Under the pieces are notes generated by a model. That model did no database searches, was not told where the DNA came from, and saw nothing but the letters and a program-made list of their open reading frames with translations. 64,000 nucleotides of DNA from positions 124,001-188,000 of the forward strand of contig NZ_JYFC01000005.1 in assembly GCF_000938265.1 (NCBI RefSeq). The letters are read 5' to 3'. How positions within the stretch are numbered: position 1 is the stretch's first letter; every line of letters starts with the position of its first letter. The translations under genes were made by a program, and so were the position numbers. This stretch comes from Agreia bicolorata (lineage in GTDB: Bacteria; Actinomycetota; Actinomycetes; Actinomycetales; Microbacteriaceae). Shown in pieces: positions 38,044-64,000 of this stretch.

Positions 38044-38055
38044 GACTCCATGGTG

Positions 38056-38660
38056 TCAGGAGCGCGGGCCGCGGGGGAGTTGGCCGACGATGGCATGGCC
38101 GGGATGTGCCCTTACCCGCAGCCGTCGTACATCCCGCCAATTATGGGACGTGCGGGCTATGAAACAGTCAGCTGATTGCGATATGAGCGTTTCGCCCTGG
38201 CCCGACGAGAACGGGACACGCGTCTCTTCGCACCAACGGCCGCGCGAGCTTTCCACAAGAACGGTGACCGCCGATGTTGTTCCGCTCAGCGGCAGTTCCG
38301 CACCGATGATTCGCTGAGCCTGTTGCAATTCCTCGTAGCCGGCGGAGTCGCCCACCGTGGAGTGGGGCACCGATCCATCGTGCAGGCCGCCGTATGGCGG
38401 ATATCCCGGGAATACGCGAGTGACAGCCGCGGTGAGCTCGACGAACCGGGCCGGAGATTTTGGCGCGAGCCAAAGCACCTCCTCGCCGAACCATTCGGTG
38501 TGCGTCAACGAGAAATTGAACTGGCGCACACCACGAACCGTTCGAGCGAGGTGCGACCAAGACAGCATCGACCATCTCTGTTGGCGCGAAGTGAGACGGA
38601 TCCTCACCTCAGGAAGCGCATGAACCTGGAGCGTCGTTACCATCAACCTCGGCATCGATA
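38056..38660 (-). pseudogene. 2'-5' RNA ligase-like (2H phosphoesterase) pseudogene
   Basis: A 199-residue open frame starts at 38655. Its C-terminal two thirds fit the 2H/LigT family: FNFSLTHTEWFGEEVLWLAP, then the HxT motif in SVPHSTVGD. The N-terminal third is broken. The expected first HxT region reads MPRLMVTTLQ, the following piece FMRFLR is in a second frame, DPSHFAPTEMVDAVL is in a third, and SHLARTVRG returns to the first. Several small indels in one short stretch mean the first catalytic motif is lost. A short residual protein could still be made. It adjoins the disturbed zone. Confidence 0.6.
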
Positions 38661-39009
38661 CGACAACACCAACCGGCGGGCCCGTAGAGAAACATCATGG
38701 CCTCGGTGTCGCTCTGGAAACGCCAAATGGTCGGACTACTAAACACGCGAGAGCTTGGCCGTCGCCAGAGGGAAGGGCGTTCGGCTCGATTCCCCTTTCT
38801 TCATCAGATCCAGCGGCTCAGGCGCAGATTGTCTATGCGCGCGCCGAAGGTCGGGCAATGGCCGCCATTGCCATGACTACGTAACGACAAGCTAGCCTGT
38901 TCCGCGCAGTAGCTAGGTACTAGCCCAGCACTACTCGCAGTGTGCTGATGCGCATCGACGTCTAACCGTGGACGGCCCGCGGGTGCCTTCAATGCAAAAC
39001 GTTGGATCC
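38661..39009. other. intergenic stretch without a gene
   Basis: No supported coding frame. The base composition is visibly lower in GC than the flanks. A 19-base palindrome, GGCAATGGCCGCCATTGCC, lies at 38854-38872. A TCGATTCCCC piece near 38787 superficially recalls a tRNA T-arm but lacks a pairing partner. The stretch probably belongs to imported or decaying DNA at the edge of the disturbed zone. Confidence 0.5.
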
Positions 39010-39894
39010 CTAAAAAGACTCTTTGGAGAATTTGTTTCCCGCGGGATCGAGGAGCACGTCTTCGAACATCACGACTCCGCTCAATAACGCAAGGTCGGGC
39101 TGTTCGTCGACTGTGGTGATCGCGAATGATGGATGAATGTAGACATCCATTGGCAGGTGACCCATCCCTAGGCCCCACATGAACAAGCGCATTCCTTGGA
39201 TACTGACGCCGATCTTCAGGCTTCGGTCGTATGGAACGTCGAGGTCAGATCCCTTCGGGAAGTCGCTCTCCGCGACGCCCACATTCGGGCCATACGCGTA
39301 AGTGTCCGTAATCAGACCTTCTCTCATGAGCCCGTTCACAGCGTTGGAGAACCTGACGTCTGAAAAGTCCTTCCCAATTCGATCCATTAGTTCTTCCTGG
39401 GGAAAAATGACACGCTTCATGTGGAGCCAGTTAGCCCTTTGTCCCACGGCAGTGTCAGCAAGAACCTGTCGGGCACTCGCGTAGATCAGATAGTGCAGAC
39501 GAAGCTGATCGGACGAGAGCCTCGCGATAAGGGAGGACCATTCGACACCGCCGTCGTAGGTTCCATCTTCAGATCTTGATGAGGCAAGAACGCCACTGAG
39601 GTACTCGGCGATCATCTCATCGTCGGCGAACTCCGCGTCGTGAAAGACCTTCGATGCGACACGGGGCGAGGCAAACCCCGCCTCACCACTGTGAATGGCG
39701 CGCTGTTCCGTCTTCGCAAGCAGTCGCGCCATATTTTTCTCACGCAATCGATCGGCCCAATGTGCTCCGAGTACGTCGGCGGTGGGGCCAAAGAGGCGCA
39801 AGAAGAGCTGAGCGCCAACTTTTGCCCCTTCCGCAGCGGCAGGGTCCACGGTCTTTGATGCTGCTCCGATAGCAGCCGTCGTAATTGGGTCCAT
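39010..39894 (-). CDS. Abi-alpha/DUF4393-like protein, possible abortive-infection factor
   Basis: A 294-residue soluble protein. The arrangement fits the Abi_alpha (PF14337, DUF4393) family: an N-terminal helix-rich part with FLRLFGPTADVLGAHWADRL and NMARLLAKTEQRA, then PRVASKVFHDAEFADDEMIA and a LIARLSSDQLRLHYLIY stretch. Family members include plasmid- and phage-linked abortive-infection proteins, though most are uncharacterised. GC is lower than in the surrounding core genes and the ribosome site is weak. Its position next to a displaced recG end and a broken gene supports recent acquisition. The antiphage role is inferred from the family name, not proven. Confidence 0.6.
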   Translation of the reverse strand: MDPITTAAIGAASKTVDPAAAEGAKVGAQLFLRLFGPTADVLGAHWADRLREKNMARLLAKTEQRAIHSGEAGFASPRVASKVFHDAEFADDEMIAEYLSGVLASSRSEDGTYDGGVEWSSLIARLSSDQLRLHYLIYASARQVLADTAVGQRANWLHMKRVIFPQEELMDRIGKDFSDVRFSNAVNGLMREGLITDTYAYGPNVGVAESDFPKGSDLDVPYDRSLKIGVSIQGMRLFMWGLGMGHLPMDVYIHPSFAITTVDEQPDLALLSGVVMFEDVLLDPAGNKFSKESF

Positions 39895-40098
39895 AGGTGA
39901 ACATTACTGATGCGTGGCAACGTAGGCGCCTAGTTCTTCGTGAGGGGCGGCAACGCACCTTATCGTCGTTCAGTCGCACGAAGGTAGCAGGTCGGTCACG
40001 TTCTATTCCACTAACGTTCTCGTCATATCCACTGATGGTGAAGACAATGCCGTTCATCAATCCGCTTGGAAACAGAGAACTGCGAAGGTGGCACGCAC

Positions 40099-51487: not shown

Positions 51488-51519
51488 CACGTCCCGCAAG
51501 CGCAACAAGTCGAGACGAT

Positions 51520-51525
51520 ATAGTG
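51520..51525 (+). promoter_or_regulatory. candidate -10 box ahead of telA
   Basis: TATAGT at 51520-51525 is a strong -10 element about 50 bases before telA. No good -35 is visible at the right distance, so the promoter may be activator-dependent. It would be the main start of the long signalling operon. Confidence 0.4.
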
Positions 51526-51574
51526 AAACGATTCCGTTGAACTCTGAAGGCTACGCCCCCGTTGTGAGGACATG

Positions 51575-52786
51575 ATGACCGACGCCGCTCCCCTGCAGGC
51601 CCCTTCCGAGAGTGTGCTCACGCTCACCGCGCCCGCGCCAGTCGCCCCGGTGGCCGCCACGTCTGCACCGAAGATGGCGCCGAAAGTCGATCCTGCTGCG
51701 CTGCCCGGACTCGATGCGAAGGTCGACACATACCTCGACACGCTCGTCACCACCGACACCCGCTCACCCGCCTTCGCGGCCAAGGCCAACGACGTGCGCA
51801 CCATGGGTGACATCGACATCCGCCAGGCTGCGGACTCGTCGAACAGACTTCTCGCCACTCCAGTCAAAGCGCTTCAATCGGGCGGCCTGTCCGAAGGCTC
51901 GAAGATCGGTTCCACGCTTCTCGAGCTGCGACGCACCGTCGAAGACCTCGACCCCAGCGAGCAGACCATCGAGCGCAAGATCCTCGGCTTCATTCCCTTC
52001 GGCCGCAAGATCGCCGACTACTTCCGCAAGTACGAGAGCGCGCAGTCGCACCTGAACGCCATCATCAAGGCGCTCTACGACGGCCAAGACGAGCTGCGCA
52101 AAGACAATGCCGCGCTGAACCTCGAAAAGCAGCATCTCTGGGAGACCATGCAGAGGCTCAACGAGTACATCTACGTGGCCGAACGCCTCGATGTGAAGCT
52201 CTCCGCCAAGATCGCCGAGTTCGACACGACCGACCCCGACAAGGCCAAGGCCCTTCGCGAAGATGTGCTCTTCTACGTCCGCCAGAAGCACCAAGACCTG
52301 CTGACCCAGCTCGCCGTCTCGATTCAGGGCTACCTGGCGATCGACGTAATCATCAAGAACAACCTCGAGCTCATCAAAGGCGTCGACCGGGCCACCACGA
52401 CCACCATCTCTGCGCTTCGCACGGCCGTGATCGTGGCGCAGGCCCTGGCCAACCAGAAGCTCGTGCTCGACCAGATCGCCGCACTGAACACCACGACCTC
52501 GAACATGATCGAGGCAACCTCGAAGATGCTGGCCGACCAGTCCGCGTCGATCCAGTCGCAGGCTGCCTCCGCAACCGTGGGCCTGCCTCAGCTTCAAGCC
52601 GCGTTCGCCAACATCTACGCGACCATGGATTCGATCACCGAGTTCAAGGTGCAGGCCCTCGACAGCATGGCCCAGACCATCGGCGTTCTCGAGACCGAGA
52701 CCGAGAAGGCCAAGCCCTACATCGAGCGTGCCCGTCGCAGCGAGACGACCGAGGTCGCAAGCACCCTCGACCTCGACAAGCGCTGA
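51575..52786 (+). CDS. telA: TelA family (toxic anion resistance) protein
   Basis: A 403-residue helical cytoplasmic protein of the TelA/KlaA family (PF05816). Landmarks are ELRRTVEDLDPSEQTIERKI, LGFIPFGRKIADYFRKYESA, EDVLFYVRQKHQDLLTQLAV and RTAVIVAQALANQKLVLDQI. TelA homologues occur with tellurite-resistance and Ter-type stress genes; the biochemical role is unresolved. I take the second ATG (51575), four bases behind GAGGA; ATG 51572 is possible. It heads the operon that runs to the right edge. Confidence 0.88.
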   Translation: MTDAAPLQAPSESVLTLTAPAPVAPVAATSAPKMAPKVDPAALPGLDAKVDTYLDTLVTTDTRSPAFAAKANDVRTMGDIDIRQAADSSNRLLATPVKALQSGGLSEGSKIGSTLLELRRTVEDLDPSEQTIERKILGFIPFGRKIADYFRKYESAQSHLNAIIKALYDGQDELRKDNAALNLEKQHLWETMQRLNEYIYVAERLDVKLSAKIAEFDTTDPDKAKALREDVLFYVRQKHQDLLTQLAVSIQGYLAIDVIIKNNLELIKGVDRATTTTISALRTAVIVAQALANQKLVLDQIAALNTTTSNMIEATSKMLADQSASIQSQAASATVGLPQLQAAFANIYATMDSITEFKVQALDSMAQTIGVLETETEKAKPYIERARRSETTEVASTLDLDKR

Positions 52787-52811
52787 GTCGACGGGTCGAG
52801 CACGTCACGCA

Positions 52812-53330
52812 ATGGGCTTCTGGCAGAACCTCCGCGACTCGGTGACGGGGCGACCTGCCGAGCGCGAATACGAGTTCGAGCTGCCGCCGGCTCCGACCAG
52901 CGCCGACATCCTGTCGTCGATCGCCGACGTGCAGGCCGACACCGCGGGCAAGGTTCCGCCCATCGTGACGGCGCGTATCAACCGCATCGCCAACACGGTC
53001 GCCGTGATGGTTCCGCGGCTCGACCAGCTCGGCGGCGGCAGCGCGCAGGCCCACACGGTGGTGTCCACTGCCACGAGCTACCTGCCCGAGGCCGTCGGCG
53101 GCTACCTTCGACTCCCCCGTGATTTCGCCGACCGTCGAGCCGTCTACAAGGGCAAGACCTCGCTCATGCTTCTGTGCGACCAGCTCGACCTGCTGGGTGT
53201 GACACTCGACAAAATCTCGGATGCCGTGTCTCGCGCCGATGCCGCGGCTCTCGTCGCGCACGGCCAATTTCTTGCGGAGAAGTTTCAGCCCTCATCGAGC
53301 CTGACCCTCCCGTCCGAACCCCTGAGCTGA
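52812..53330 (+). CDS. hypothetical protein of the telA-pknG operon
   Basis: A 172-residue soluble protein starting MGFWQNLRDSVTGRPAEREY, mostly helical (NRIANTVAVMVPRLDQLGGG, then LLCDQLDLLGVTLDKIS). No domain is recognised. In other bacteria a small XpaC-type gene often accompanies telA; this protein occupies that place but shows no clear XpaC motif to me. It lies 25 bases behind telA and 11 before the AAA gene, clearly in the operon. Ribosome site weak (GAGCACGTCACGCA). Confidence 0.7.
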   Translation: MGFWQNLRDSVTGRPAEREYEFELPPAPTSADILSSIADVQADTAGKVPPIVTARINRIANTVAVMVPRLDQLGGGSAQAHTVVSTATSYLPEAVGGYLRLPRDFADRRAVYKGKTSLMLLCDQLDLLGVTLDKISDAVSRADAAALVAHGQFLAEKFQPSSSLTLPSEPLS

Positions 53331-53341
53331 GCGAAGACACC

Positions 53342-54982
53342 ATGACATCCGCTGATTCCCACGAGCTGCGCCAAGCCCTCGACGCCCTCGTCGCCGCGGC
53401 AGAGAGCGCAGGCCTCGATTCCGCCGCAGCCCGAGACGAGGGCGTGCGCATCGCTGCGGCGGTAGCCGAGTCCGCCATCGGCGCGTCGGTGCAGTGGGTC
53501 GATCAGACCGGCGCGGGCAGCGCCGATGAGTTCTTCGAAGCCGCGTCGAGCGCGAGGCGCTGGCGGGCCTCGCCCACCGATCTGCTGAGCAGGCTGGCGG
53601 CCGAGGCTCCCCAGCACGCGGGCGACTACGCAAAGGCTCTCACCGGTGTCGTCGCTGCGGCGAGCGAATTGGGCGAGCCGTCGATCGGCGTGCTCGGGGC
53701 GGCCTCCGCCACAGCGGCCGCGCAGCTCGCCGGCGCCCGCCAGGCTCCGTCGATCCCTCCGCTCTCGCGCACCGAGGCCACTCTGTTCCCCTCGACGACG
53801 CTCGCCCCGATACCTCATGCCGCTCAGCCGCTCACGGCCGATCAACTCTCCACTCAGCAGCCCGACTTCGCACGCCCCGGCGACGCGACGATGGCCGAAC
53901 TCGCCCGCCGAGCCGGGCTCACCTCGTCTGAACCAGAACCGGTCTCTCCGACCGCGACTCAGCCTGCGCCCGCAGCCGCGCCACCCGCCGAAGAAGAAGA
54001 GGAGAAACCGAAGAAGACGGTCGAGGAGCTGCTCGCGGAGCTCGACAGTCTGATCGGGCTCGACCGGGTCAAGAGAGAAATCCACCGGCAGACTCAGCTG
54101 TTGCGCATCGATCAGCTGCGAACGGCCGCAGGCCTCACGACTCCGACGCTCACGAGGCACCTCGTCTTTCTCGGCAACCCCGGCACGGGCAAGACCACTG
54201 TCGCCCGTCTCGTCGCCGGCATCTACGCGGCCCTCGGCATCCTGTCGAAGGGCCATCTCGTCGAGGTCGACCGTTCCGAACTGGTGGGCGGCTACCTCGG
54301 GCAGACGGCGACCAAGACATCCGAGGTCGTCGCCGGAGCCATCGGCGGCGTGCTCTTCATCGACGAGGCCTACGGTCTGGCGCTCGACCAGTACGGAGCC
54401 GAGGCGATCACGACCATCGTCAAAGACATGGAAGATCACCGCGACGACCTCGTTGTGATCGTGGCCGGCTACCCCGAGCCGATGCGCGGATTCATGGAGA
54501 CGAACCCCGGGCTCGCCAGCCGCTTCTCCACCTCCATCACGTTCCAGGACTACACCGACGCCGAGCTGCGCGACATCTTCGTGCGCCTCGCCGAGGCATC
54601 CGATTTCGAGCCGACGCCCGAGGCGCTCGCGCGATTCGAGCAGATCGTGTCGATCGAGCCGCGAGACGAGGGCTTCGGCAACGGCCGCTACGCCCGCAAC
54701 CTGCTCGACAAGGCGATCGCACGGCATGCCTGGCGACTGCGCGGCGTCGCCGAGCCGACGCTCGACGAACTGCGCCTGCTGCTGGCCGACGACCTCAATG
54801 ACTCGAACGACGGCGAGGTGCAGAGCACCGCCGGCGAAGCGGTCGGCGCACCCATCCTCGTCGATGTGCCGCAGACTGATCAGACGAGCGCGATCGAGGC
54901 CGAGTCGGCCGACACCGTGCCCGCCGCCGTTCCCCCCTCAGACGATCCCGCAGAACCGACCACGTCGAAGGACACCGAATGA
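53342..54982 (+). CDS. AAA family ATPase, CbxX/CfqX type
   Basis: A 546-residue protein. The N-terminal ~240 residues are Ala/Pro-rich with an acidic run (EEEEEKPKK) before the ATPase domain (residues ~245-500). That domain has GLDRVKREIHRQ, Walker A GNPGTGKTTVARL, Walker B GVLFIDEAYGL, sensor 1 VIVAGYPEPM, the Arg finger in NPGLASRFSTSITF, and the GNGRYARNLLDKA region. This matches the CbxX group (PF00004), whose members include Rubisco activases and type VII secretion EccA proteins. The N-terminal part probably binds a partner. It overlaps glnX by ATGA. Confidence 0.88.
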   Translation: MTSADSHELRQALDALVAAAESAGLDSAAARDEGVRIAAAVAESAIGASVQWVDQTGAGSADEFFEAASSARRWRASPTDLLSRLAAEAPQHAGDYAKALTGVVAAASELGEPSIGVLGAASATAAAQLAGARQAPSIPPLSRTEATLFPSTTLAPIPHAAQPLTADQLSTQQPDFARPGDATMAELARRAGLTSSEPEPVSPTATQPAPAAAPPAEEEEEKPKKTVEELLAELDSLIGLDRVKREIHRQTQLLRIDQLRTAAGLTTPTLTRHLVFLGNPGTGKTTVARLVAGIYAALGILSKGHLVEVDRSELVGGYLGQTATKTSEVVAGAIGGVLFIDEAYGLALDQYGAEAITTIVKDMEDHRDDLVVIVAGYPEPMRGFMETNPGLASRFSTSITFQDYTDAELRDIFVRLAEASDFEPTPEALARFEQIVSIEPRDEGFGNGRYARNLLDKAIARHAWRLRGVAEPTLDELRLLLADDLNDSNDGEVQSTAGEAVGAPILVDVPQTDQTSAIEAESADTVPAAVPPSDDPAEPTTSKDTE

Positions 54983-56310
54983 GCACGACCGCAGCCGCGC
55001 CCCCGCCGCCGGTACCCCAGGCATCCCCACAGCCGAACGCCCCGGCGACGACTGTCGCACAGCCCCAGGGCGCACTGGCCGCCGCTCCCGTGAAGAAGAC
55101 GCGCTCCACTCCCGCGACTCTCCGCCTGCTGCTCGCCGTCTCTGTGCTCGCCAGCCTGGCGTTCGGTGCCGCGGGATTTCAGACGGGATCGTCGCAGGCG
55201 AGTGCCACGGCCGACGCGAGCGCCGAAGCCGCCCAGCTGATCGGCATCCAGTCTGTGCGCAACGACCTGGTGCGCGCCGACGCGATCGCCGCCAATGCGT
55301 TCCTCGTCGGCGGGCTCGAGCCCGCCGATCAACGTGCTGAGTACGACACCGCCATCGACGACGCGACGCGCGAAATCACCCTTCTCGCGGCCGACGACAA
55401 AGCCGGAGACACCGACTTCGCCAAGGTCAACGCCGAGGTCGCGATCTATACCGGCCTCATCGAGCAGGCGCGCGCGAACAACCGCCAGGGATTCCCGGTT
55501 GGCGCCGCATACCTGTCGCAGGCATCCGCATTGCTCAACGACAGCACGCTTCCTCAGCTCGAGGCACTCGTTCTCGCGAGCGCCGACAGGGCTGCAGGGA
55601 GCTTTACGGCCTCGACCGTGTCGCTGGTCTGGCTCATCATCGCCCTCGCAGCTCTGATCGCTCTGGTCTGGGTGCACCTCTGGATCACCCGGCGCTCGCA
55701 CCGCTACCTCAACTGGCCGCTTCTCATCGCGGCCGTCGCCATGCTCGTGGTCGGCGTCGTCGGCGTGATCACGTTCTCGAACACCACCGGCGCTGCGATC
55801 GAGGCACGGCAGAACTCCTACGCCAAGACCCTCGCCATCTCTCAGGCGTACACCTCGGCCACCGAGGCCAAGTCGCTCGAGAGCTTCACACTCATCAAGC
55901 GCGGCTCGGGGCAGACGCTCGAGGCCGAGGTGCAGACGGCTATCGCCGATGCTCAGGCGCGCCTCGACTCGCGCGGCAAGAACTACCTGATCGGCGACGA
56001 CCTCAAGAACGGCTTCGACTCGTGGGTCGAGAAGCACGCGGCGATCCGCCAGCTCGACGACGCGGGCAACTGGGACGACGCGGTCAAGCAGGCGATCAGC
56101 CAGGAACCCGACAGCGCCAACGCCGCCTTCACCGCGTTCAGCACCGCCGCGCAAGACGACATAGCCTCAAGTGCTGCCACCACCAAGAACGCGCTCGACA
56201 CGGGCGGCTCGCAATCGGCTCTCCTCGGCTGGATCTTCCTCGTGGCCGGCCTCGCCGCCGCCGTGCTCTCCTGGCGCGGCGTCTCCCTTCGACTCAAGGA
56301 GTACCGATGA
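54979..56310 (+). CDS. glnX: GlnX-like membrane sensor of the PknG pathway
   Basis: A 443-residue protein. After a Pro/Ala-rich tail come four membrane helices: LLLAVSVLASLAFGAAGF near residue 55, two around 210-270 (SLVWLIIALAALIALVWVHL, LIAAVAMLVVGVVGVITF), and one at the end (LLGWIFLVAGLAAAVLSW). Two helical extracytoplasmic regions lie between them. This layout and the place next to glnH and pknG match GlnX of mycobacteria and corynebacteria, where GlnH-bound amino acids are signalled through GlnX to PknG. It overlaps both neighbours by four bases. Confidence 0.82.
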   Translation: MSTTAAAPPPPVPQASPQPNAPATTVAQPQGALAAAPVKKTRSTPATLRLLLAVSVLASLAFGAAGFQTGSSQASATADASAEAAQLIGIQSVRNDLVRADAIAANAFLVGGLEPADQRAEYDTAIDDATREITLLAADDKAGDTDFAKVNAEVAIYTGLIEQARANNRQGFPVGAAYLSQASALLNDSTLPQLEALVLASADRAAGSFTASTVSLVWLIIALAALIALVWVHLWITRRSHRYLNWPLLIAAVAMLVVGVVGVITFSNTTGAAIEARQNSYAKTLAISQAYTSATEAKSLESFTLIKRGSGQTLEAEVQTAIADAQARLDSRGKNYLIGDDLKNGFDSWVEKHAAIRQLDDAGNWDDAVKQAISQEPDSANAAFTAFSTAAQDDIASSAATTKNALDTGGSQSALLGWIFLVAGLAAAVLSWRGVSLRLKEYR

Positions 56311-57308
56311 GCGCCATCCGTTCACGCACGGCCCGCATCGCACTCGTCGCGACGCTGATCGGCACGCTCGCTCTCACCGCGTGCGCGCCGCGATCGGGCA
56401 GCGACGACCTGGGTCTCACCCCCACGCCGACGCCCACCGAGAGCGCGCCGAGCACCCCGGCTCCCGCGTCGACCTGCACGAACACCGAGGGCCAGGTGCA
56501 GCCCTCGTACTCGCCTATCTCGCCCGACTCGGTTCCGGCCGGCAGCTCCATCGAGGCGATCAAGAACAACGGCGTGCTCCGGGTCGGTGTCTCCGCCGAC
56601 ACACTGCTGATGGGCGCGCGTAACCCGCTCACGGGTCAGATCGAGGGCTTCGACATCGATGTTCTGCACGAGATCTCCCGGGCGATCTTCGGCGATCCGA
56701 ACAAGCTGCAGTTCAAGGTCATCACCTCTGCTCAGCGCCTCGACGTGCTCACTCCCGACGCCGCCGGCAACACGCAGGTCGACATCGTGGCCCGCACGAT
56801 GACCATCAACTGCGCCCGCTGGGAGACCATCGCGTTCTCGACCGAGTACTACGAGGCCGGCCAGAAAGTTCTCGTCGCGAGCAACTCCGAGGCGAAATCG
56901 ATGGACGACCTCAACGCACTGGGCGACCAGAAGGTCTGCGCGCCCGCGAGCACGACGACGCTCACCCGCCTCGAGAGCTACTCGGGCATAGAGGCGGTCT
57001 CGGCCGCCACCCACACCGAGTGCCTCGTGCTGTTCCAGCAGGGCAAGGTGGATGCCATCACCGGCGACGACACGATCCTCGCCGGATTCGCCGCGCAAGA
57101 CCCGTATGCCATGGTCGTCGGCGACGCGATCAGCGCGGAACCGTATGGCCTCGGTATGCCGGCCGACAAGGTCGACCTCGTGCGTTTCGTCAACGGCGTG
57201 CTCGACCGCATGCGCAGCGACGGCACATGGACGAGCCTCTACAACAAGTGGCTCGGCGTGCTCGGCCCGGCGCCGGCTCCGCCCGCGGCCGTCTATGGAC
57301 GCGGCTAG
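56307..57308 (+). CDS. glnH: GlnH-like glutamate/aspartate-binding lipoprotein
   Basis: A 333-residue extracytoplasmic family 3 binding protein. The signal peptide ends in the lipobox LTAC (Cys26), followed by a Thr/Pro linker and the SBP_bac_3 domain: NGVLRVGVSADTLLMGARNP, GQIEGFDIDVLHEISRAIFG, DIVARTMTINCARWETIAFS and YGLGMPADKVDLV. In actinobacteria the GlnH next to GlnX and PknG senses dicarboxylic amino acids rather than feeding a transporter; no permease genes are present here. The start ATG 56307 overlaps the glnX stop. Confidence 0.88.
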   Translation: MSAIRSRTARIALVATLIGTLALTACAPRSGSDDLGLTPTPTPTESAPSTPAPASTCTNTEGQVQPSYSPISPDSVPAGSSIEAIKNNGVLRVGVSADTLLMGARNPLTGQIEGFDIDVLHEISRAIFGDPNKLQFKVITSAQRLDVLTPDAAGNTQVDIVARTMTINCARWETIAFSTEYYEAGQKVLVASNSEAKSMDDLNALGDQKVCAPASTTTLTRLESYSGIEAVSAATHTECLVLFQQGKVDAITGDDTILAGFAAQDPYAMVVGDAISAEPYGLGMPADKVDLVRFVNGVLDRMRSDGTWTSLYNKWLGVLGPAPAPPAAVYGRG

Positions 57309-57366
57309 GCCCTCGCCCTCACCCGCGATCACCAACCCCACCCCCGATCCGCCGAGAGGAGCAGCG

Positions 57367-58497
57367 ATGACGATGACCGCCAACGGAAGCACGCCGGTCG
57401 CTCCCGGGCGCCTAGGAGAGGCGATCGACCCCGGCGAACTGCTCAGCTATCTCACCGGTCTCGGCGAGTGGGTCGATCGGCAGAGAAAAGAACTCGATCG
57501 TCTGGGCGCTGCGGCCCTCGCGTCGCAGGAGCCCGACTCCTACACCTCCGACATCGTTCTCGCAGAGACGCTGTGGGAGGCCACTCGCAAACGCCGTGAG
57601 AGCCTCGAGAGTGTCTGGGATTCCGGCCGCGTCGACACGGTCGCCAGGCAGAAGATGTCGCAGCTCATCTGGGGTCGGCTCGACTCCGGGGGCGGCGCAG
57701 AGCTCGTCTCGCTCGTCGAGGCCGTGCGACTCGCTGACGCCCTCGTCTCGCAGCTGACGACGCGACTCAGCCTCGACCCGCGGGCCGCGGGCACCACCGC
57801 GCGCATCGTCGGCCTGCGCGCGGAACTCGAGCGCTCACGCGACCTGGCAGCATCCGACCCCGACAGCGCAGCGCGGGTCTCCACCCTGCGCAACCGGCTC
57901 GAGGCCCTCGCCGAGAAGGCCGGCCGAGGCGCCGACGTGACCGGACCGCTTGGTCAACTGGTGCAAGACTCGGCGCACCTCGAACGCGACCTCATCGTCG
58001 CGAGTTCGCAGAAGCGCGACCTGGCCCGGGATGCGCGCAAGGCGGCCGACGACGCGGCCGCCGCAGAGCGACGCGAGCCGGTGCTGCGGGCTCTGGCCGA
58101 GCGCTGCCGCCGCGAGATCGTCGACCCTCCGAAGCTGGCGATCCCCGATGTGTCGAAGCTCGGACCGGTTCCGCAGTCGCGTGCCGCGCTCGACTCCTGG
58201 ATCGCTCGCCTCGCCCTGGTGAACCGCGCCTTCGAGGCTGTCGAAGACGCCTATGCAGGCCAGCTGCGAGAGCGCGCCGAACTGCGCTATCGGCTGTCTG
58301 GCTATCACGCCAAGGCCGAGAGCTCCGGCCGTTCGGCGTCGCCCACTGTCGCGGCCGGCTACCTCGAGGCCAAAGAGGCCGTCGACACCACTCCGTGCGA
58401 TCTGCGCCTCGCCCGCTTCTACGTCGAGCAATACCAATTTCTCACCCGTGACCTGCCGTCGGCATCCCCGCCGCGTCAAGGTCAGGAAGGACGCTAA
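57367..58497 (+). CDS. coiled-coil hypothetical protein between glnH and pknG
   Basis: A 376-residue soluble, mostly helical protein with heptad-like stretches (RIVGLRAELERSRDLAASDP, TLRNRLEALAEKAGRGADVT, SQKRDLARDARKAADDAAAA). No catalytic motif is seen. Its place between the sensor lipoprotein and the kinase is conserved in spirit with the pknG locus but I do not recognise the family. The start ATG 57367 follows GAGAGGAG at good spacing; an earlier ATG 57295 overlaps the glnH end. It stops 5 bases before pknG. Confidence 0.75.
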   Translation: MTMTANGSTPVAPGRLGEAIDPGELLSYLTGLGEWVDRQRKELDRLGAAALASQEPDSYTSDIVLAETLWEATRKRRESLESVWDSGRVDTVARQKMSQLIWGRLDSGGGAELVSLVEAVRLADALVSQLTTRLSLDPRAAGTTARIVGLRAELERSRDLAASDPDSAARVSTLRNRLEALAEKAGRGADVTGPLGQLVQDSAHLERDLIVASSQKRDLARDARKAADDAAAAERREPVLRALAERCRREIVDPPKLAIPDVSKLGPVPQSRAALDSWIARLALVNRAFEAVEDAYAGQLRERAELRYRLSGYHAKAESSGRSASPTVAAGYLEAKEAVDTTPCDLRLARFYVEQYQFLTRDLPSASPPRQGQEGR

Positions 58498-58502
58498 ACG
58501 TC

Positions 58503-60824
58503 ATGACCGATGTCCAGCACTGCCAGCAGCCCGGCTGCACGGGTGTGATCGAAGACGGCTACTGCAACGTCTGCGGTTCGCCCGCAGCGCCAACCCCACT
58601 TCCCCCAGCGTCGGGCAGCGGCACTGCCGCCGCCGCGTCACCCTCGGCCAAGCTGGGCACGGGTTTCTCGGCCGGCCCGCAGGCCGGAGCCGACGCTGAT
58701 CCCGACTTCGCGCAGGCCGGTTCGACGCGCACCGGCCGCACGTCGTCGGCGAGACTCGCCACGGCGGCGCTGGGGTCGGCACGTACCGCCGCGACCGGCT
58801 CCAAGGCGACCCGCCGGTTCGGAACGACCTCCACTCGCCTCCGCGGCCCACGCCTCGGCGCCGGGCTCACCACCGTTCCCACCGAGCCACCCGCAGATCC
58901 GCTGAAAGCGGTCATGGCTGTCGCAGAGCTCCCCGAAGCGAAGCGATTCTGCTCGAACTGCGGCAAGCCGGTTGGTCGCGGTCGCGACGGCAAGCCCGGC
59001 CGCACCGAAGGCTTCTGCCCCAACTGCCGCACTCCCTTCTCCTTCACTCCCCAGCTCAAGCCGGGCGACGTAGTCGGCGGCCAGTACGAGGTCGTCGGCT
59101 GCCTCGCGTTCGGTGGTCTCGGCTGGATCTATCTCGCCCGTGACCAGAACGTCTCGGGCCGCTGGGTGGTTCTGAAGGGCCTGCTCAACTCGGGCGATCC
59201 GGATGCCTATGCCGCGGCGATCACGGAACGCCAGTTCCTCGCCGAGGTCGAGCACCCCCTGATCGTCGAGATCTACAACTTCGTGATGTTCAATGGCGCC
59301 GGCTACATCGTGATGGAGTACGTGGGCGGTCCTTCGCTCAAGGTGATCCTCAAAGAGCGTATGAAGGCGAACAACGGTGTCGTCGACCCTCTGCCGGTCG
59401 ACCAGGCGCTCGCCTACGTGCTCGAGATCCTGCCCGCCTTCCAGTATCTGCACGACATCAATCTGTTGTTCTGCGATTTCAAGCCCGACAACATGATCCA
59501 GGTCGGCGACACGGTGAAGCTGATCGACCTCGGCGGTGTGCGCCGCATCGACGATCAGACCTCGGCCATCTTCGGAACCGTCGGATTCCAGGCGCCCGAG
59601 GTTCCCGACGTAGGCCCCTCCGTCGCAGCCGACATCTACACGATCGGCCGAACCCTGGCCACGCTCGTGCTCGACTTCCGCGGCAACCAGACGACCTTCG
59701 TGTCGTCGCTGCCCGATGTCGCAGACACCCCCGTGTTCCAGAAATACGACTCTTTCTACCGGCTGCTCGCCAAGGCGTGCGCGTTCGATCCGTCAGACCG
59801 CTTCGCGTCAGTCGACGAGCTGCGCGCCCAGCTGTTGGGAGTGCTGCGCGAGGTCGTAGCCACCGACCGCGGACCGGGCCACCCCGCGCTGCACTCCGCG
59901 GCATCCGTTCTCTTCGAGGCGCCCGTCGCCGACGTCGTCGATCGACCACTGCCCTGGGATGCGCTGCCGGGGCTGAAGGTCGACGAGTCCGACCCCGCCC
60001 GCAGCTGGCTCGCGGGGGTGAACATGGAAGACCCGGCCGCGCGCCTGATCGCCCTCGAGTCCGCTCCGAACGTCACTGTCGAGATCCGTCTCGCCCGTGC
60101 TCGGGCGGCCATCGAGTCAGGCAATTTTCCGGCCGTCGAAGCCGTGATGAGTGAGATTCTCACCGATGACCCGTGGGAATGGCGGGCCGTGTGGCTTGCC
60201 GGCCTCGCTGAACTCGCCAAGGGAGATGCGCGCAGTGCCCGCGCGTCGTTCAATACCGTCTACGGCCAGGTGCCCGGAGAACTCGCCCCGAAGCTCGCCC
60301 TCGCAGCGGCGTGCGAGGCCAGTGGCGAGCCAGAGATTGCCGAGAGCCTCTACATCATCTGCGCGCGTTCCGATGCGAACTACACCGCCGCGGCCGCGTT
60401 CGGTCTCGCTCGGATCCGCGAGCAGAGAGGTGACCTCGACGGCGCACTGACGGCCCTCGATCTCGTCACGCCCACGCGCAGTTCCTACGTCGACGCCCGT
60501 CGTCGGCGCGCCGAGCTGCTGGCCACGTCGAACCGCGGACTGCCGTCGCTGGCCGCCGCACTCGACAGCGTCGCGACGGTATCGATCGATTCGAGGTCGC
60601 GCGTCGAGCTCACCGCCAGCGTCCTGGCATCCGCCCTGGCGGTGGTGCGCGACTCCGGCCCGTCCACCGACTCCGTTGTCGGCGGCATCCCCGCGCAGGA
60701 AGGGCCGCTTCGCGACGGCCTTGAGCGCGCCTATCGAGAACTCGCCGGCCTTACCGAGAACCCGGCCGAACGCGTGCACCTGGTCGACGAGGCCAACCGC
60801 GTTCGACGGTGGACCCTCTCGTGA
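58503..60824 (+). CDS. pknG: PknG-type serine/threonine protein kinase
   Basis: A 773-residue cytoplasmic kinase. An N-terminal zinc-ribbon-like segment (CQQPGCTGVIEDGYCNVCG, residues 7-25) and a linker precede a rubredoxin-like module with Cys150/Cys153 and Cys172/Cys175. The kinase domain has Lys225 in WVVLKGL, the catalytic Asp325 in FCDFKPDN and Asp342 in LIDLGG. The C-terminal third is a TPR-like helical repeat region. PknG has no membrane helix and in relatives controls the 2-oxoglutarate dehydrogenase inhibitor and thus glutamate metabolism. The extra N-terminal ribbon is unlike mycobacterial PknG. Confidence 0.92.
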   Translation: MTDVQHCQQPGCTGVIEDGYCNVCGSPAAPTPLPPASGSGTAAAASPSAKLGTGFSAGPQAGADADPDFAQAGSTRTGRTSSARLATAALGSARTAATGSKATRRFGTTSTRLRGPRLGAGLTTVPTEPPADPLKAVMAVAELPEAKRFCSNCGKPVGRGRDGKPGRTEGFCPNCRTPFSFTPQLKPGDVVGGQYEVVGCLAFGGLGWIYLARDQNVSGRWVVLKGLLNSGDPDAYAAAITERQFLAEVEHPLIVEIYNFVMFNGAGYIVMEYVGGPSLKVILKERMKANNGVVDPLPVDQALAYVLEILPAFQYLHDINLLFCDFKPDNMIQVGDTVKLIDLGGVRRIDDQTSAIFGTVGFQAPEVPDVGPSVAADIYTIGRTLATLVLDFRGNQTTFVSSLPDVADTPVFQKYDSFYRLLAKACAFDPSDRFASVDELRAQLLGVLREVVATDRGPGHPALHSAASVLFEAPVADVVDRPLPWDALPGLKVDESDPARSWLAGVNMEDPAARLIALESAPNVTVEIRLARARAAIESGNFPAVEAVMSEILTDDPWEWRAVWLAGLAELAKGDARSARASFNTVYGQVPGELAPKLALAAACEASGEPEIAESLYIICARSDANYTAAAAFGLARIREQRGDLDGALTALDLVTPTRSSYVDARRRRAELLATSNRGLPSLAAALDSVATVSIDSRSRVELTASVLASALAVVRDSGPSTDSVVGGIPAQEGPLRDGLERAYRELAGLTENPAERVHLVDEANRVRRWTLS

Positions 60825-62032
60825 GCGATGCACACATCGGGGGCGCTGCTGTGCCTCCCGTCGAGCCTGTGCCCGGCTCCGAGGTCGCACCGACCGTCGA
60901 GGCGGCCCCAGCCGAGACGCCGGCTGCGTCGTCGGTGCCGGTTCTCTGTCCCGCCTGCGGCACGGTCAACGATCCCGACGCGAAGTACTGTGAGGAGTGC
61001 GGCACCCAGCTCGGCGACCTCGTCGAGGTGAGCACCGCTCCCGAAGCAGGCGAGACCGAGGCGGTGGCCGAACAGAACGAGGCCACGTCGTCGACCTCCA
61101 CACCGCGACGCGCCTGCGTCTACTGCGGCGGAAGCATCGCCGATGACGGCTACTGCGAACTCTGCGGCAAGCCCGCTCAGAGCGAGCGCGACCACTGGCA
61201 GGAGGCACCCGCAGCCTGGGTCGGCGGAGTGTGCGACCGCGGCATCCGGCACGAGATCAACGAAGACGCGATGGCTCTGGCGGCAGACCCGCAACCCGGG
61301 GAGTTCGCCGTGCTGGTCGTATGCGACGGGGTCTCATCGACGCCGGGCTCAGACAAGGCGAGCCTCGCCGCCGCTCGCGCCGCAACCGCCCATCTCGCCG
61401 CCGGGCGAGAGACCGACGTCGCCGACGGCCACGGCGACGAACTCGCGCAGGCCCGCTGGTCAGACCGGATGCTCGAGGCCGGCGAACGCTCGAGCGCCGC
61501 GATCTACGAGGCGATCGGCGAACTGGCGGCACGAACGAATCCGCCATCGTGCACCTTCGCGGCAGCCGTCATCGACGGCCCCCTGGTGGTCGTCGGAGGA
61601 GTCGGCGACAGCCGGGTCTACTGGATCGCCGACAGCGGCAAGTCTCGCCAGCTGACCACCGACGACTCGTGGTCGCAGGAGATGATGGCCCACGGCATGT
61701 CACGTCAGCAGGCCGAGAGCGCCCCGCAGGCGCACTCCATCACTCGCTGGCTCGGTGCCGACTCGCCCGACGAGGTTCCCCACGTCGTGCCCACGTATCC
61801 GACGGGCGCCGGTTGGATTCTGGTCTGCTCAGACGGCCTCTGGAACTACTGCTCCGACGCCGACGATCTCGCCGAGCTCGTGCACCGGGTCGTAGGACTG
61901 GTAGGAAGCAACCCCGTTCAGGTGGCCTCGTCGCTTGTCGATTGGGCCAATGAGCAGGGCGGTCAAGACAACATCACCGCCGTGCTCGCTCGATTCGATA
62001 GCGTTGTACCTACACCGGCCCAGCCGGCCTGA
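60821..62032 (+). CDS. PP2C-family phosphatase with N-terminal zinc ribbons
   Basis: A 403-residue protein. Two CxxC zinc-ribbon segments come first (VLCPACGTVNDPDAKYCEEC near residue 45, and CVYCGGSIADDGYCELCG near 105). A PP2C domain follows: GIRHEINEDAMAL, VVCDGVSSTPGSDKAS, GGVGDSRVYWI, LVCSDGLWNYC and GGQDNITAVLARF, so the metal-binding Asp residues are present. It probably reverses phosphorylation by PknG or acts on the FHA/vWA proteins of the operon. The start GTG 60821 overlaps the pknG stop. Confidence 0.9.
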   Translation: MSDAHIGGAAVPPVEPVPGSEVAPTVEAAPAETPAASSVPVLCPACGTVNDPDAKYCEECGTQLGDLVEVSTAPEAGETEAVAEQNEATSSTSTPRRACVYCGGSIADDGYCELCGKPAQSERDHWQEAPAAWVGGVCDRGIRHEINEDAMALAADPQPGEFAVLVVCDGVSSTPGSDKASLAAARAATAHLAAGRETDVADGHGDELAQARWSDRMLEAGERSSAAIYEAIGELAARTNPPSCTFAAAVIDGPLVVVGGVGDSRVYWIADSGKSRQLTTDDSWSQEMMAHGMSRQQAESAPQAHSITRWLGADSPDEVPHVVPTYPTGAGWILVCSDGLWNYCSDADDLAELVHRVVGLVGSNPVQVASSLVDWANEQGGQDNITAVLARFDSVVPTPAQPA

Positions 62033-62057
62033 TCTATGACAGATAGAGGAGTCTCCC

Positions 62058-63338
62058 GTGGCAGAGTTCACAGCCAGCGTTTTTCAGAATGAATTCCTCT
62101 CAGACGGGGCCACCGACGTTCACGCCATCGTGACCGTCACGGTCTCAGGCGCAGGTCAGGCGGGGCAAGGCCAGGGCATGGCTGCGGGCGAGATCATCAT
62201 CGTCGACACGTCTGGATCGATGACCGGCGAGAACCTCGGAGCGGCCAAGCACGCGGCCTCCGTGGCGATCGACCAGATCCTCGACGGCACGTGGTTCGCC
62301 GTGATCTCCGGCACCGACACGGCGGCTCGCGCATTCCCGTACCCGAATGCTCGGCTTCCCATGGTGCAGATGGAGCCGGGTGCCCGTGCCGCGGCCAAGC
62401 AGGCAGTCGCCGCTCTCCAGCCCTCCGGCGGAACGGCGATGGGCACGTGGCTCACGCTGGCACGCGAACTCTTTCAGGCCACTCCGCAGGCCACTCAGCG
62501 TCACGCGATCCTCCTCACAGACGGCAAGAACGAGCACGAATCGGCGCAGGCGCTCAGCCAGGCGATCTACAACGCCACCGGCGTGTTCCAGTGCGATGCC
62601 CGCGGTGTCGGTTCGCGCTGGCAGGTCGACGAATTGCGCCAGATCGCCACGGCTCTGCTCGGCACGGTCGACCTCATCGCCAAGCCCGCCGACATGGCCG
62701 CCGACTTCGAGAGCATCATCAAGCAGTCGATGGGCCGAGGCGTGGCGTCGGCCGAGCTGCGCGTCTGGGCCCCCCAGGGCGCCGAGGTGCTGTTCGTACG
62801 ACAGGTCGCGCCCACGGTCGAAGATCTCACCACCCGCAAGACCATGGTCAACCCGCTCACGGGGTCGTACCCCACCGGATCATGGGGCGACGAATCCCGC
62901 GACTATCACGTTGCCGTGCGGGTCGCATCCAAGCCCGTTGGATCTGAGCAGCTCGCCGCACGTGTGCAACTGACCGTGCGCGACGAGGTCGTCTCATCCG
63001 GTCTCGTGAAAGCGCGCTGGTCGAATGACGACGCGCTCACGGCGCGCATCGACCCGGCCGTGGCGCACTACACGGGCCAGACCGAGCTCGCCTCCGCCAT
63101 CCAGGACGGCCTCGCGGCCAAAGCCGCCGGCGATGCCGCAACGGCCACTGTCAAGCTGGGGCGCGCGGTTCAGCTCGCTGCTGAAACCGGCAACGACGAA
63201 GCGACGGCGAAGCTCCGCAAGGTCGTCGAGATCGATGACGCGAACGAAGGCACCGTGCGGCTTCGTCGCGACGTGGCGAAGCTCGATGAGATGGCGCTCG
63301 ACACGGCGTCGACCAAGACCACGCGGGTGCGCAAATGA
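62058..63338 (+). CDS. von Willebrand factor A-domain protein
   Basis: A 426-residue protein with a vWA domain at residues ~40-230. The MIDAS motif DTSGSMTGE is complete, with the distal Thr in PSGGTAMGTWL and Asp in LLTDGKNE. A beta-rich middle and a helical tail (roughly residues 340-426) follow. There is no signal peptide, so it acts in the cytoplasm. Triads of kinase, PP2C and vWA protein are known from Ter-type stress systems. The start is GTG 62058 with AGAGGAG ahead; its stop overlaps the FHA gene start. Confidence 0.9.
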   Translation: MAEFTASVFQNEFLSDGATDVHAIVTVTVSGAGQAGQGQGMAAGEIIIVDTSGSMTGENLGAAKHAASVAIDQILDGTWFAVISGTDTAARAFPYPNARLPMVQMEPGARAAAKQAVAALQPSGGTAMGTWLTLARELFQATPQATQRHAILLTDGKNEHESAQALSQAIYNATGVFQCDARGVGSRWQVDELRQIATALLGTVDLIAKPADMAADFESIIKQSMGRGVASAELRVWAPQGAEVLFVRQVAPTVEDLTTRKTMVNPLTGSYPTGSWGDESRDYHVAVRVASKPVGSEQLAARVQLTVRDEVVSSGLVKARWSNDDALTARIDPAVAHYTGQTELASAIQDGLAAKAAGDAATATVKLGRAVQLAAETGNDEATAKLRKVVEIDDANEGTVRLRRDVAKLDEMALDTASTKTTRVRK

Positions 63339-64000
63339 CCCTCTGCCCCAACGGACACTCGTCGGCATCGACCGACTACTGCGACGTGTGCGGAACGCCC
63401 ATGGTTGCGGCGGCGCCCGTTGCACCGACACCGACGGCGGCCGCCCCGACCTCCTCGGGCTCGAGCGAGCCGATCACATGCCCGAACTGCTCGTTCCCGA
63501 ACCTGCCGGATGCGCTGTTCTGCGAGAACTGCGGGTATGACTTCACGACGGGGTCGCTGCCCGAACCAGACCCCGACGCGCCGGGATTCGCCGCTCCGCT
63601 TACGGCACCGGCTCCTGTGCCCAACGCGCCCACTGTCGTTCCCGTCGTCGCCCCGGTGTCGAGCCTCGACATCGAGGAGGGCGACCTCGGCAAGCATGAA
63701 GCGTCTGGCGACCCCGGCTACGTCGAGGCTCCCGCCATCGAGGGCCAACCCACGGTTGAGCCCGCCGGCGCGGCCGAACCCTCGGAGCCGGAAGGCCCGA
63801 CGGGTCCTGTGGTCTCCTCCCCCGCCACGTCGACGATCGAGGGTGACAACAGCTGGGTTGCCGAGGTGTGGGTCGATCCCGAGTGGTACGCCGCTCAGAA
63901 GTCCGACGATCCGCTGCCCTCTGGGGGGCTGCCCGAGATCGTGGTTCTCAAGCAGAGCAGCCTATTGGTGGGCCGCACATCCGTCTCTCGTGATATTCAC
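63335..64000 (+). CDS. FHA-domain protein with zinc ribbons (partial, C-terminus off the right edge)
   Basis: The first 222 codons are present. Two CxxC ribbon segments come first (CPNGHSSASTDYCDVCG and CPNCSFPNLPDALFCENCG). A Pro/Ala-rich linker of about 130 residues follows, then a beta-rich start of an FHA domain: VVLKQSSLLVGRTSVSRDIH, with the GR and SR residues that bind phosphothreonine. FHA domains read Ser/Thr phosphorylation, so this protein is a likely target or adaptor of the kinase and phosphatase encoded upstream. The ATG overlaps the vWA stop. Confidence 0.85.
   Translation, partial: MTLCPNGHSSASTDYCDVCGTPMVAAAPVAPTPTAAAPTSSGSSEPITCPNCSFPNLPDALFCENCGYDFTTGSLPEPDPDAPGFAAPLTAPAPVPNAPTVVPVVAPVSSLDIEEGDLGKHEASGDPGYVEAPAIEGQPTVEPAGAAEPSEPEGPTGPVVSSPATSTIEGDNSWVAEVWVDPEWYAAQKSDDPLPSGGLPEIVVLKQSSLLVGRTSVSRDIH

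What the first reader, a model, noticed from the sequence alone, without database searches (positions are those of the whole stretch)
51488..64000. Long operon joining TelA, AAA ATPase, GlnX-GlnH-PknG, PP2C, vWA and FHA proteins
GlnH-GlnX-PknG is an established amino-acid-sensing route in mycobacteria and corynebacteria. Here it sits inside one tightly packed plus-strand operon of at least 12.4 kb with telA, a CbxX-type ATPase, two orphan genes and a PP2C/vWA/FHA set. Kinase-PP2C-vWA triads and TelA are known from Ter-type stress systems. The combination suggests that an extracellular amino-acid signal controls a TelA/AAA/vWA machine through phosphorylation, which I do not know to be described.
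Basis: partly seen in the sequence, partly recalled or inferred. Interest (0 to 1): 0.8.

Follow-up and report, generated by a model that had tools for sequence, protein, structure and literature searches.

The report
Conserved PknG–TelA–vWA signalling gene cluster
An actinobacterium carries one tight run of ten genes that joins a known amino-acid sensor and its protein kinase to what looks like an envelope-stress machine, and the same run recurs in related families, which suggests the kinase controls more than the one metabolic target it is known for.

Summary
In an Agreia genome ten plus-strand genes run from 51,572 to 64,249, just past the window: telA, orfA, a CbxX/SpoVK-type AAA gene, glnX, glnH, orfB, pknG, PP2C, vWA, FHA.

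The run is no accident. All ten, same order and strand, occur at 22 of 29 other pknG loci in a 248-genome sample of the order; 4 more are cut by contig ends. The 'orphans' are core parts: OrfB occurs in 27 of 248 genomes, all with PknG.

Variants show modules. Streptomyces-type loci lack telA-orfA-AAA; Ornithinimicrobium types lack glnH and have a diverged GlnX; one Propionibacteriaceae MAG fuses OrfB to the bare kinase domain.

Three candidate wiring signals: a PknG zinc ribbon that tracks the vWA gene, a near-invariant Thr-rich vWA tail, and an [E/D]YR end on GlnX.

Best reading: a sensor-PknG-OrfB-vWA/FHA/PP2C phospho-switch on a TelA-OrfA-AAA envelope machine. Linkage is shown; biochemistry is inferred, and a GarA homologue elsewhere leaves the classical output open. 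Not a Ter system by TerD.

The parts
51572..52786 (+). telA, 404 aa, TelA family; cluster-specific subfamily
   Evidence: PF05816 E 1.7e-92; in a tree of 55 TelA rows the 36 cluster copies plus one remnant lie apart from 18 other copies, SH-aLRT 94
52812..53330 (+). orfA, 172 aa, directly after telA; no Pfam family
   Evidence: 23 homologues aligned, 50% mean column identity; best Pfam E 0.04 among 23 members; weak relatives beside other TelA genes
53342..54982 (+). CbxX/SpoVK/EccA-type AAA ATPase, 546 aa
   Evidence: AAA and AAA_lid_6; NCBIfam spore_V_K, T7SS_EccA and cbbX all below cut-off; Walker A and B in 65 of 65 homologues, 51 of them different DNA
54979..56310 (+). glnX, 443 aa, membrane sensor/transmitter with four TM-like segments, ending in KEYR
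   Evidence: NF058618 302 bits; TM-like segments and the conserved C-terminal [ED]YR
56307..57308 (+). glnH, 333 aa, solute-binding protein, probable lipoprotein (lipobox seen by eye)
   Evidence: SBP_bac_3; solved GlnH 6h2t/6h1u E about 1e-64; ligand residues
57367..58497 (+). orfB, 376 aa, long all-helical protein of an unnamed family
   Evidence: 25-member alignment; best Pfam E 0.0095 among 25 members; no significant PDB relative by sequence or fold; model mean pLDDT 87, pTM 0.52
58503..60824 (+). pknG, 773 aa: N-terminal zinc ribbon, Thr/Ser-rich linker, rubredoxin, kinase, TPR
   Evidence: kinase motifs present; zinc ribbon
60809..62032 (+). PP2C-type phosphatase with zinc ribbons, 407 aa (first start in frame)
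   Evidence: PF13672, DZR
62058..63338 (+). vWA protein, 426 aa, VWA_3_C domain and C-terminal DTASTKTTRVRK tail
   Evidence: PF13768, PF18571; tail in 57 of 58 loci of different DNA; model
63335..64000 (+). FHA protein with two N-terminal zinc ribbons (by eye), 304 aa; continues to 64,249 outside the window (L002:13335-14249)
   Evidence: FHA domain at C16:187968-188198; sequence

Best explanation
The ten genes are one functional unit built of modules. GlnH, where present, senses an extracellular amino-acid-like ligand and acts through the membrane protein GlnX. GlnX docks PknG, probably by its conserved C-terminal [E/D]YR end in the TPR groove. OrfB is the scaffold that holds the PknG kinase. 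PknG and PP2C set the phosphorylation of a partner, most likely the Thr-rich tail of the vWA protein, which the FHA protein then reads; zinc ribbons on PknG, PP2C and FHA tie the three together. The switch governs a TelA-OrfA-AAA machine that remodels or protects the cell envelope. Shown: gene linkage, co-occurrence, modular variants, conserved motifs, kinase motifs present. Inferred: every binding and phosphorylation step, and the envelope role of TelA.
For: Ten-gene order at 22 of 29 order-sample pknG loci, and all ten genes at 21 of 39 named loci, 12 of which repeat DNA of the unnamed sets. By hand tally: 27 of 29 PknG genomes have TelA (one of them, G309, only a stand-alone copy) against 83 of 248 overall, and all 27 OrfB genomes have PknG. 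Cluster TelA is a separate subfamily. OrfB fused to the PknG kinase domain in a minimal telA-orfA-(orfB::kinase)-vWA-FHA locus, L119. Sensor changed while the other eight genes stay, 10 of 39 named loci. With repeated DNA removed, the PknG zinc ribbon is at 57 of the 58 loci with vWA, and the vWA tail in 57 of 58. GlnX end [ED]YR in 52 of 54 non-redundant sequences against mean conservation 0.435. telA and xpaC-like genes respond to envelope stress in Firmicutes (PMC12791056, PMC3139573, passages).
Against: Linkage is not interaction. The genome also encodes a GarA homologue (E 1.5e-41 to a solved GarA, Thr pair kept), so PknG may act there alone. Streptomyces-type loci keep vWA-PP2C-FHA without telA-orfA-AAA, and 4 of 7 such genomes have no TelA hit at all. 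Genome G139 keeps telA and AAA without a PknG rubredoxin hit. Three order-sample loci (L017, L027, L031) lack most of the extra genes. The OrfB-kinase fusion is one MAG; no second case appeared among the listed matches in 186 family genomes, and two hits that spanned both halves proved to be ordinary separate genes. The vWA tail is only partly unstructured in the model: helix to residue 417, last six residues mean pLDDT 53, and other windows inside the fold are as conserved (0.90 against 0.89). Single transcription is untested.
Confidence: 0.5

Rival explanations
1. Co-location only. PknG works as in mycobacteria, through the GarA/OdhI protein on 2-oxoglutarate dehydrogenase; telA, orfA, AAA, vWA and FHA are co-transcribed stress genes with no phospho-link to PknG.
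For: A GarA homologue is encoded at C19:55786; it matches solved GarA and OdhI at E 1e-41 to 1e-37 and its ETDTTLHF aligns with the VETTSVF stretch of GarA. Mycobacterial-type loci keep only glnX-glnH-pknG.
Against: Retention of the other genes after the sensor changed, the OrfB-kinase fusion, the zinc ribbon/vWA association and OrfB only where PknG is argue for a functional link.
Confidence: 0.27
2. A Ter-type tellurite or oxidative-stress system in which TelA and the kinase-PP2C-vWA set work as in Ter operons.
For: TelA, vWA, PP2C and kinase together; the likeness to Ter-type triads is recalled. A disrupted telA homologue made Listeria 2-fold more susceptible to tellurite, and 4-fold to nisin (passage of PMC12791056).
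Against: No TerD in the genome; no Ter domain among the operon proteins scanned with Pfam. TerC was not searched in the genome.
Confidence: 0.07
3. An antiphage or conflict system with a kinase trigger and AAA/vWA effectors.
For: PADLOC returns kinase matches (PD-T4-6 and others) and weak AAA matches (TRIP13, IetA, mad8).
Against: No PADLOC match at E<=0.001 for telA, orfA, glnX, glnH, orfB, PP2C, vWA or FHA; the same gene order recurs across families; the kinase has PknG's own TPR and rubredoxin domains.
Confidence: 0.05

Closest known systems
GlnH-GlnX-PknG-GarA/OdhI pathway of mycobacteria and corynebacteria (PMC6069109, PMC9769921, PMC8546545; passages read)
   Same: Same three proteins in one gene run; PknG motifs, rubredoxin and TPR present; a GarA homologue elsewhere in the genome.
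   Different: Seven more linked genes, a zinc ribbon on PknG, His instead of Trp232 in the GlnH pocket, and GlnH absent in some clusters.
TelA/XpaC pair of Firmicutes, linked to envelope stress (PMC12791056, PMC3139573; passages read)
   Same: telA next to a small partner gene.
   Different: OrfA matches no XpaC model in the Pfam scan; here the pair is linked to an AAA ATPase and a kinase.
CbbX / SpoVK / EccA AAA ATPases
   Same: AAA module with AAA_lid_6; best NCBIfam matches.
   Different: Below the cut-offs of all three NCBIfam models; the matches cover only about residues 274-549 of the 602-codon frame.
Ter-associated kinase-PP2C-vWA triads (recalled)
   Same: Kinase, PP2C and vWA genes side by side, TelA nearby.
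   Different: No TerD in the genome; the kinase is PknG, with a GlnX/GlnH sensor.

Membership tests
GlnH-GlnX-PknG signalling operon | PknG with kinase and TPR domains (rubredoxin optional) | tested here: met
   PF00069, PF16918, PF16919; PDB 2pzi E 3.8e-141
GlnH-GlnX-PknG signalling operon | GlnX family membrane protein | tested here: met
   NF058618 302.2 bits, cut-off 250; the narrower equivalog NF041460 was below its cut-off, 118 of 780
GlnH-GlnX-PknG signalling operon | GlnH that binds Asp/Glu | tested here: inconclusive
   Arg147, Thr162, Arg169, Asp250 kept, Ser164 to Thr, Trp232 to His (residues from PMC6069109, passage)
GlnH-GlnX-PknG signalling operon | GarA/OdhI substrate with N-terminal Thr pair | tested here: met
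   L071 protein matches solved GarA (8p5r) E 1.5e-41 and OdhI (2kb3) 5.2e-37, Thr pair aligned; that PknG phosphorylates it was not tested
GlnH-GlnX-PknG signalling operon | Control of 2-oxoglutarate dehydrogenase | not testable with these tools
   needs biochemistry
TelA family | PF05816 over its cut-off | tested here: met
   310.5 bits, cut-off 30
XpaC family (for OrfA) | Match to a Pfam XpaC model | tested here: not met
   no such match in 23 members at E<=1; that the library holds an XpaC model is recalled
CbbX, SpoVK or EccA (for the AAA protein) | Score over an NCBIfam equivalog cut-off | tested here: not met
   SpoVK 255 of 423, EccA 234.5 of 466.7, CbbX 223.9 of 459.3 bits
Ter stress system | TerD in the genome | tested here: not met
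   0 matches in the genome; the control search found it in 2 of 14 genomes
Ter stress system | TerC in the genome | not tested
   no whole-genome TerC search was made
Known antiphage defence system | PADLOC match of several operon proteins to one system | tested here: not met
   matches for the kinase and the AAA protein only; the shown matches of the two share no more than the mads system (mad6, mad8), the latter weak at E 0.00046

The most novel reading that the evidence does not exclude
PknG's wider job in Actinobacteria is to run a phospho-switch made of OrfB, a vWA protein with a TKT tail, an FHA reader and PP2C, which gates a TelA-OrfA-AAA envelope machine; the GarA/TCA branch known from mycobacteria and corynebacteria is a stripped-down relative of it. 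GlnX plugs into the PknG TPR groove by a C-terminal [E/D]YR peptide, so different sensors can be exchanged on one machine.
Probability: 0.3. Interest if true: 0.82.

Novelty: new variant of a known kind. Interest (0 to 1): 0.62.

Why it matters
The PknG papers I saw treat the kinase mainly through GarA/OdhI and central metabolism. A conserved locus that joins its sensor to a vWA/FHA/PP2C switch and a TelA/AAA machine points to a second output, gives the poorly understood TelA proteins a regulatory setting, names a new core protein family (OrfB), and makes specific peptides testable: the GlnX C-terminal end for PknG docking, a contact whose mode the 2022 C. glutamicum paper calls still elusive (PMC9769921, passage), and the vWA tail for phosphorylation.

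Tried and rejected
corA as part of the operon: rejected; next to telA only in the Agreia loci. OrfA as XpaC: no Pfam support. OrfB by Pfam, PDB sequence and fold: best Pfam E 0.0095, PDB sequence E 0.047, fold E 0.42. TelA against the PDB: best E 0.62. Ter system: TerD absent. Defence system: kinase and AAA hits only. Promoter and terminator scan: uninformative. More OrfB-kinase fusions: none among the listed matches (list cut off); two hits that spanned both halves (G724, G716) were fetched and are ordinary separate orfB and pknG genes. Gene-tree comparison: TelA and PknG share 18 of 25 splits, other pairs 10 to 21; this fits co-inheritance but also shared species history, so I give it little weight. 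PknG N-terminal Thr/Ser pairs: 53 of 70 by a crude pattern that also caught unrelated stretches; not used. A zinc-ribbon count that depended on start codons (PknG 71 of 85) was replaced by one on whole frames (76 of 86). First kinase patterns missed the Streptomyces-type loop; the alignment corrected this. Rows dropped: G232 (below cut-off, stops inside), L050 (no cluster gene), L059 (too weak for the TelA tree); second or weak PknG hits in G023, G193, G128, G006, G084 and G013 were not fetched.
Full report
What is there. The window is C16:124001-188000 of a 3.9 Mb genome. The named relatives with nearly identical OrfB (94-98%) are five Agreia genomes, and two genomes of the window's genus in the sample hold the same DNA as Agreia sp. 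Leaf210 and Leaf283, so the organism is an Agreia (Microbacteriaceae). From 51,572 to 64,249 ten genes follow each other on the plus strand: telA, orfA, AAA, glnX, glnH, orfB, pknG, PP2C, vWA, FHA. With the starts I chose, four of nine junctions overlap and the widest gap is 58 bases. The last gene is cut by the window end and was completed from the genome.

Is it more than chance? In 248 genomes of the order, 30 have a PknG rubredoxin hit. One (G232) is below the cut-off, has stop codons inside and was dropped, which leaves 29 genomes, the window's included. I took 29 pknG loci from the 28 others; G314 has two. All ten genes are found in the same order and strand at 22 of these 29. Four (L003, L004, L006, L014) run into contig ends with the genes they still hold in keeping; three (L017, L027, L031) lack most extra genes. 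By hand tally, TelA occurs in 83 of 248 genomes but in 27 of the 29 with PknG (one of the 27, G309, has only a stand-alone copy), and OrfB in 27 of 248, all with PknG. These genomes are related and not independent. A scan of named genomes with the OrfB alignment gave 39 loci, 21 of them with all ten genes (order not scripted there): Agreia, Cellulomonas, Serinibacter, Kineosporia, Microlunatus, Miniimonas, Pseudactinotalea, Pengzhenrongella and four MAGs. Fourteen of the 39, and 12 of the 21, are the same DNA as unnamed loci, so the two sets overlap.

The TelA here is its own subfamily. I fetched 20 TelA loci from genomes without PknG, or away from pknG. Nineteen had no AAA, glnX, glnH, orfB, pknG, PP2C or FHA hit at E 1e-4, and one of these (L069) a weak vWA hit; weak OrfA relatives were common. 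L055 is a telA-AAA pair without the rest. L059 had only a very weak TelA hit and was not in the tree. In the tree of 55 rows the 36 cluster copies and L055 lie apart from the 18 other copies (SH-aLRT 94, quick method, several long branches).

Natural variants. (1) Mycobacterial-type loci (L036-L039, L041; the label is my inference) have only glnX-glnH-pknG; L048, a second copy in L041's genome, only pknG. (2) Seven Streptomyces-type loci (L040, L042-L047; again my label) have glnX, glnH, a weak OrfB relative (55-65 bits), pknG, PP2C, vWA and FHA but no telA-orfA-AAA; 3 of these 7 genomes have a TelA elsewhere. (3) Ten of 39 named loci, all Ornithinimicrobium or Serinicoccus, keep telA, orfA, AAA, orfB, pknG, PP2C, vWA and FHA but have no GlnH hit. 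Nine of them have a weak GlnX hit, 18-22% identical to the window's, and in the tenth (L109) an unassigned frame ends in the same RLRDYR; a second membrane protein is found in nine of the ten, not in L108. (4) L119, a Propionibacteriaceae MAG, has telA, orfA, one ORF whose residues 5-213 match OrfB and 219-415 the PknG kinase domain, then vWA and FHA, in a row; no TPR, rubredoxin, PP2C, AAA, GlnX or GlnH was found there. This single case joins OrfB to the kinase physically. A search of 186 genomes of the family of G406, which I take to be the same family, listed no second one; the list was cut off, and two hits that spanned both halves were fetched and are ordinary separate genes.

Candidate wiring signals. 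Counts here leave out the 14 repeated loci unless said. Of 72 pknG loci, 57 have both an N-terminal zinc ribbon on PknG and a vWA gene, 1 has vWA only (L119), 5 have the ribbon only and 9 neither. Of the 5, L014 and L088 are cut by contig ends, L017 is a second copy in a genome with a full cluster, and L034 and L035 have VWA_3_C elsewhere on the contig; of the 9, L104 is a fragment at a contig end. PP2C and FHA carry similar ribbons in most loci (69 of 75 and 59 of 69, repeats included, which depends on start choice). The vWA protein ends in DEMxL[DE]TxSTKTxRV in 57 of 58 loci, and in 30 of 31 below 90% identity; L119 lacks it. In the model the tail begins as a helix (408-417) and its last six residues have mean pLDDT 53. 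VWA_3_C occurs in 9 of 196 phylum genomes, the window's included, each at the pknG locus. GlnX ends in [ED]YR in 52 of 54 non-redundant sequences, with Gly at -10, Arg at -6 and Tyr at -2 in all 54, against a mean conservation of 0.435. Published work proposes that GlnX's short cytoplasmic ends meet the TPR domain (PMC6069109, PMC9769921; passages); a search for 'EYR' in the main texts of those two papers found nothing.

Is the chemistry intact? The five kinase residues checked (Lys, catalytic Asp and Lys, Asn, and the Asp of DLG) are kept in 83 of 84 aligned PknG rows, repeats included; the exception is L108, where the gene appears in two pieces. The Streptomyces type has CDFKVDN for CDFKPDN. 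The AAA Walker motifs are in 65 of 65, repeats included, and the MIDAS motif is in the window's vWA by eye. In 57 different GlnH sequences Arg147 and Arg169 are kept in 57, Ser/Thr164 in 57 and Asp250 in 56, while Thr162 is kept in 34 and Trp232 in 5 (His in 36; residue roles from PMC6069109), so binding of an amino acid is likely and its identity open.

How it most likely works. A sensor (GlnH-GlnX, or GlnX-type proteins alone) acts on PknG; OrfB scaffolds the kinase; PknG and PP2C set phosphorylation of the vWA tail; FHA reads it; the outcome is passed to TelA-OrfA-AAA. The envelope role rests on Firmicutes: an XpaC-like gene and telA1 are in a table of the Lactococcus response to membrane-protein overproduction, in a paper on the envelope-stress couple CesSR, and a disrupted telA homologue made Listeria more susceptible to nisin (4-fold) and tellurite (2-fold) (passages). 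No interaction, phosphate or phenotype was measured here. The strongest rival is that PknG acts only on the GarA homologue at C19:55786, which matches solved GarA at E 1.5e-41 and keeps the Thr pair, while the other genes are merely co-expressed.

Origin. PknG is rare in this family: 5 of 150 genomes in two genera, with a sixth weak hit below the cut-off. In the TelA tree those copies sit next to a family f61 sequence, with Cellulomonas copies close by; the nearest non-Agreia rows for telA, orfB, pknG and vWA are f61 or the second Microbacteriaceae genus. Horizontal gain from a Cellulomonadaceae-like donor is likely but was not tested formally.

Literature. Paper searches and passages of PMC9769921, PMC6069109, PMC8546545, PMC1262709, PMC12791056, PMC3139573 and PMC11322744 showed no description of this ten-gene locus. 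The seven papers that hold both 'PknG' and 'TelA' were seen as listings only. Three hold 'GlnX' and 'TelA'; one was opened, and both words there mean something else. No paper held 'PknG' with 'toxic anion resistance'. Figures, among them the STRING neighbourhood figure of PMC6069109, could not be seen, and most subscription papers are not held.

Noticed in passing
L119:10004-11365: A single ORF joins the N-terminal half of OrfB to the PknG kinase domain, without rubredoxin or TPR, in a minimal telA-orfA-vWA-FHA locus of a Propionibacteriaceae MAG.
   Followed up: partly
L107: A contig labelled Acidobacteria carries an Ornithinimicrobium-type cluster; probably a mis-binned MAG contig.
   Followed up: no
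L108: pknG appears as two separate pieces in this Ornithinimicrobium draft genome.
   Followed up: no
L040, L042-L047 (pknG): Streptomyces-type PknG has CDFKVDN in the catalytic loop where most cluster kinases have CDFKPDN and the mycobacterial type NDLKPEN or NDLKPDN.
   Followed up: partly
L052, L053: Stand-alone TelA genes are followed by three OrfA-like genes in a row; the one scanned (in L053) has no Pfam family.
   Followed up: partly
L055 (genome G139): A telA-AAA pair of the cluster type stands alone in a genome without a PknG rubredoxin hit; a same-genus genome, G273, has a TelA that scores similarly.
   Followed up: partly
L034, L035: In the second Microbacteriaceae genus the vWA gene is parted from the rest of the cluster; VWA_3_C lies roughly 9 to 20 kb from pknG on the same contig.
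   Followed up: partly
window 21420-22421 and 33329-33964: Start residues look like CofD and CofC, enzymes of coenzyme F420 synthesis, with luciferase-like (LLM) proteins at 2199-3212 and 34830-35828 (by eye).
   Followed up: no
window 38001-40000: G+C falls to 0.589, the lowest 2-kb block in the window.
   Followed up: no
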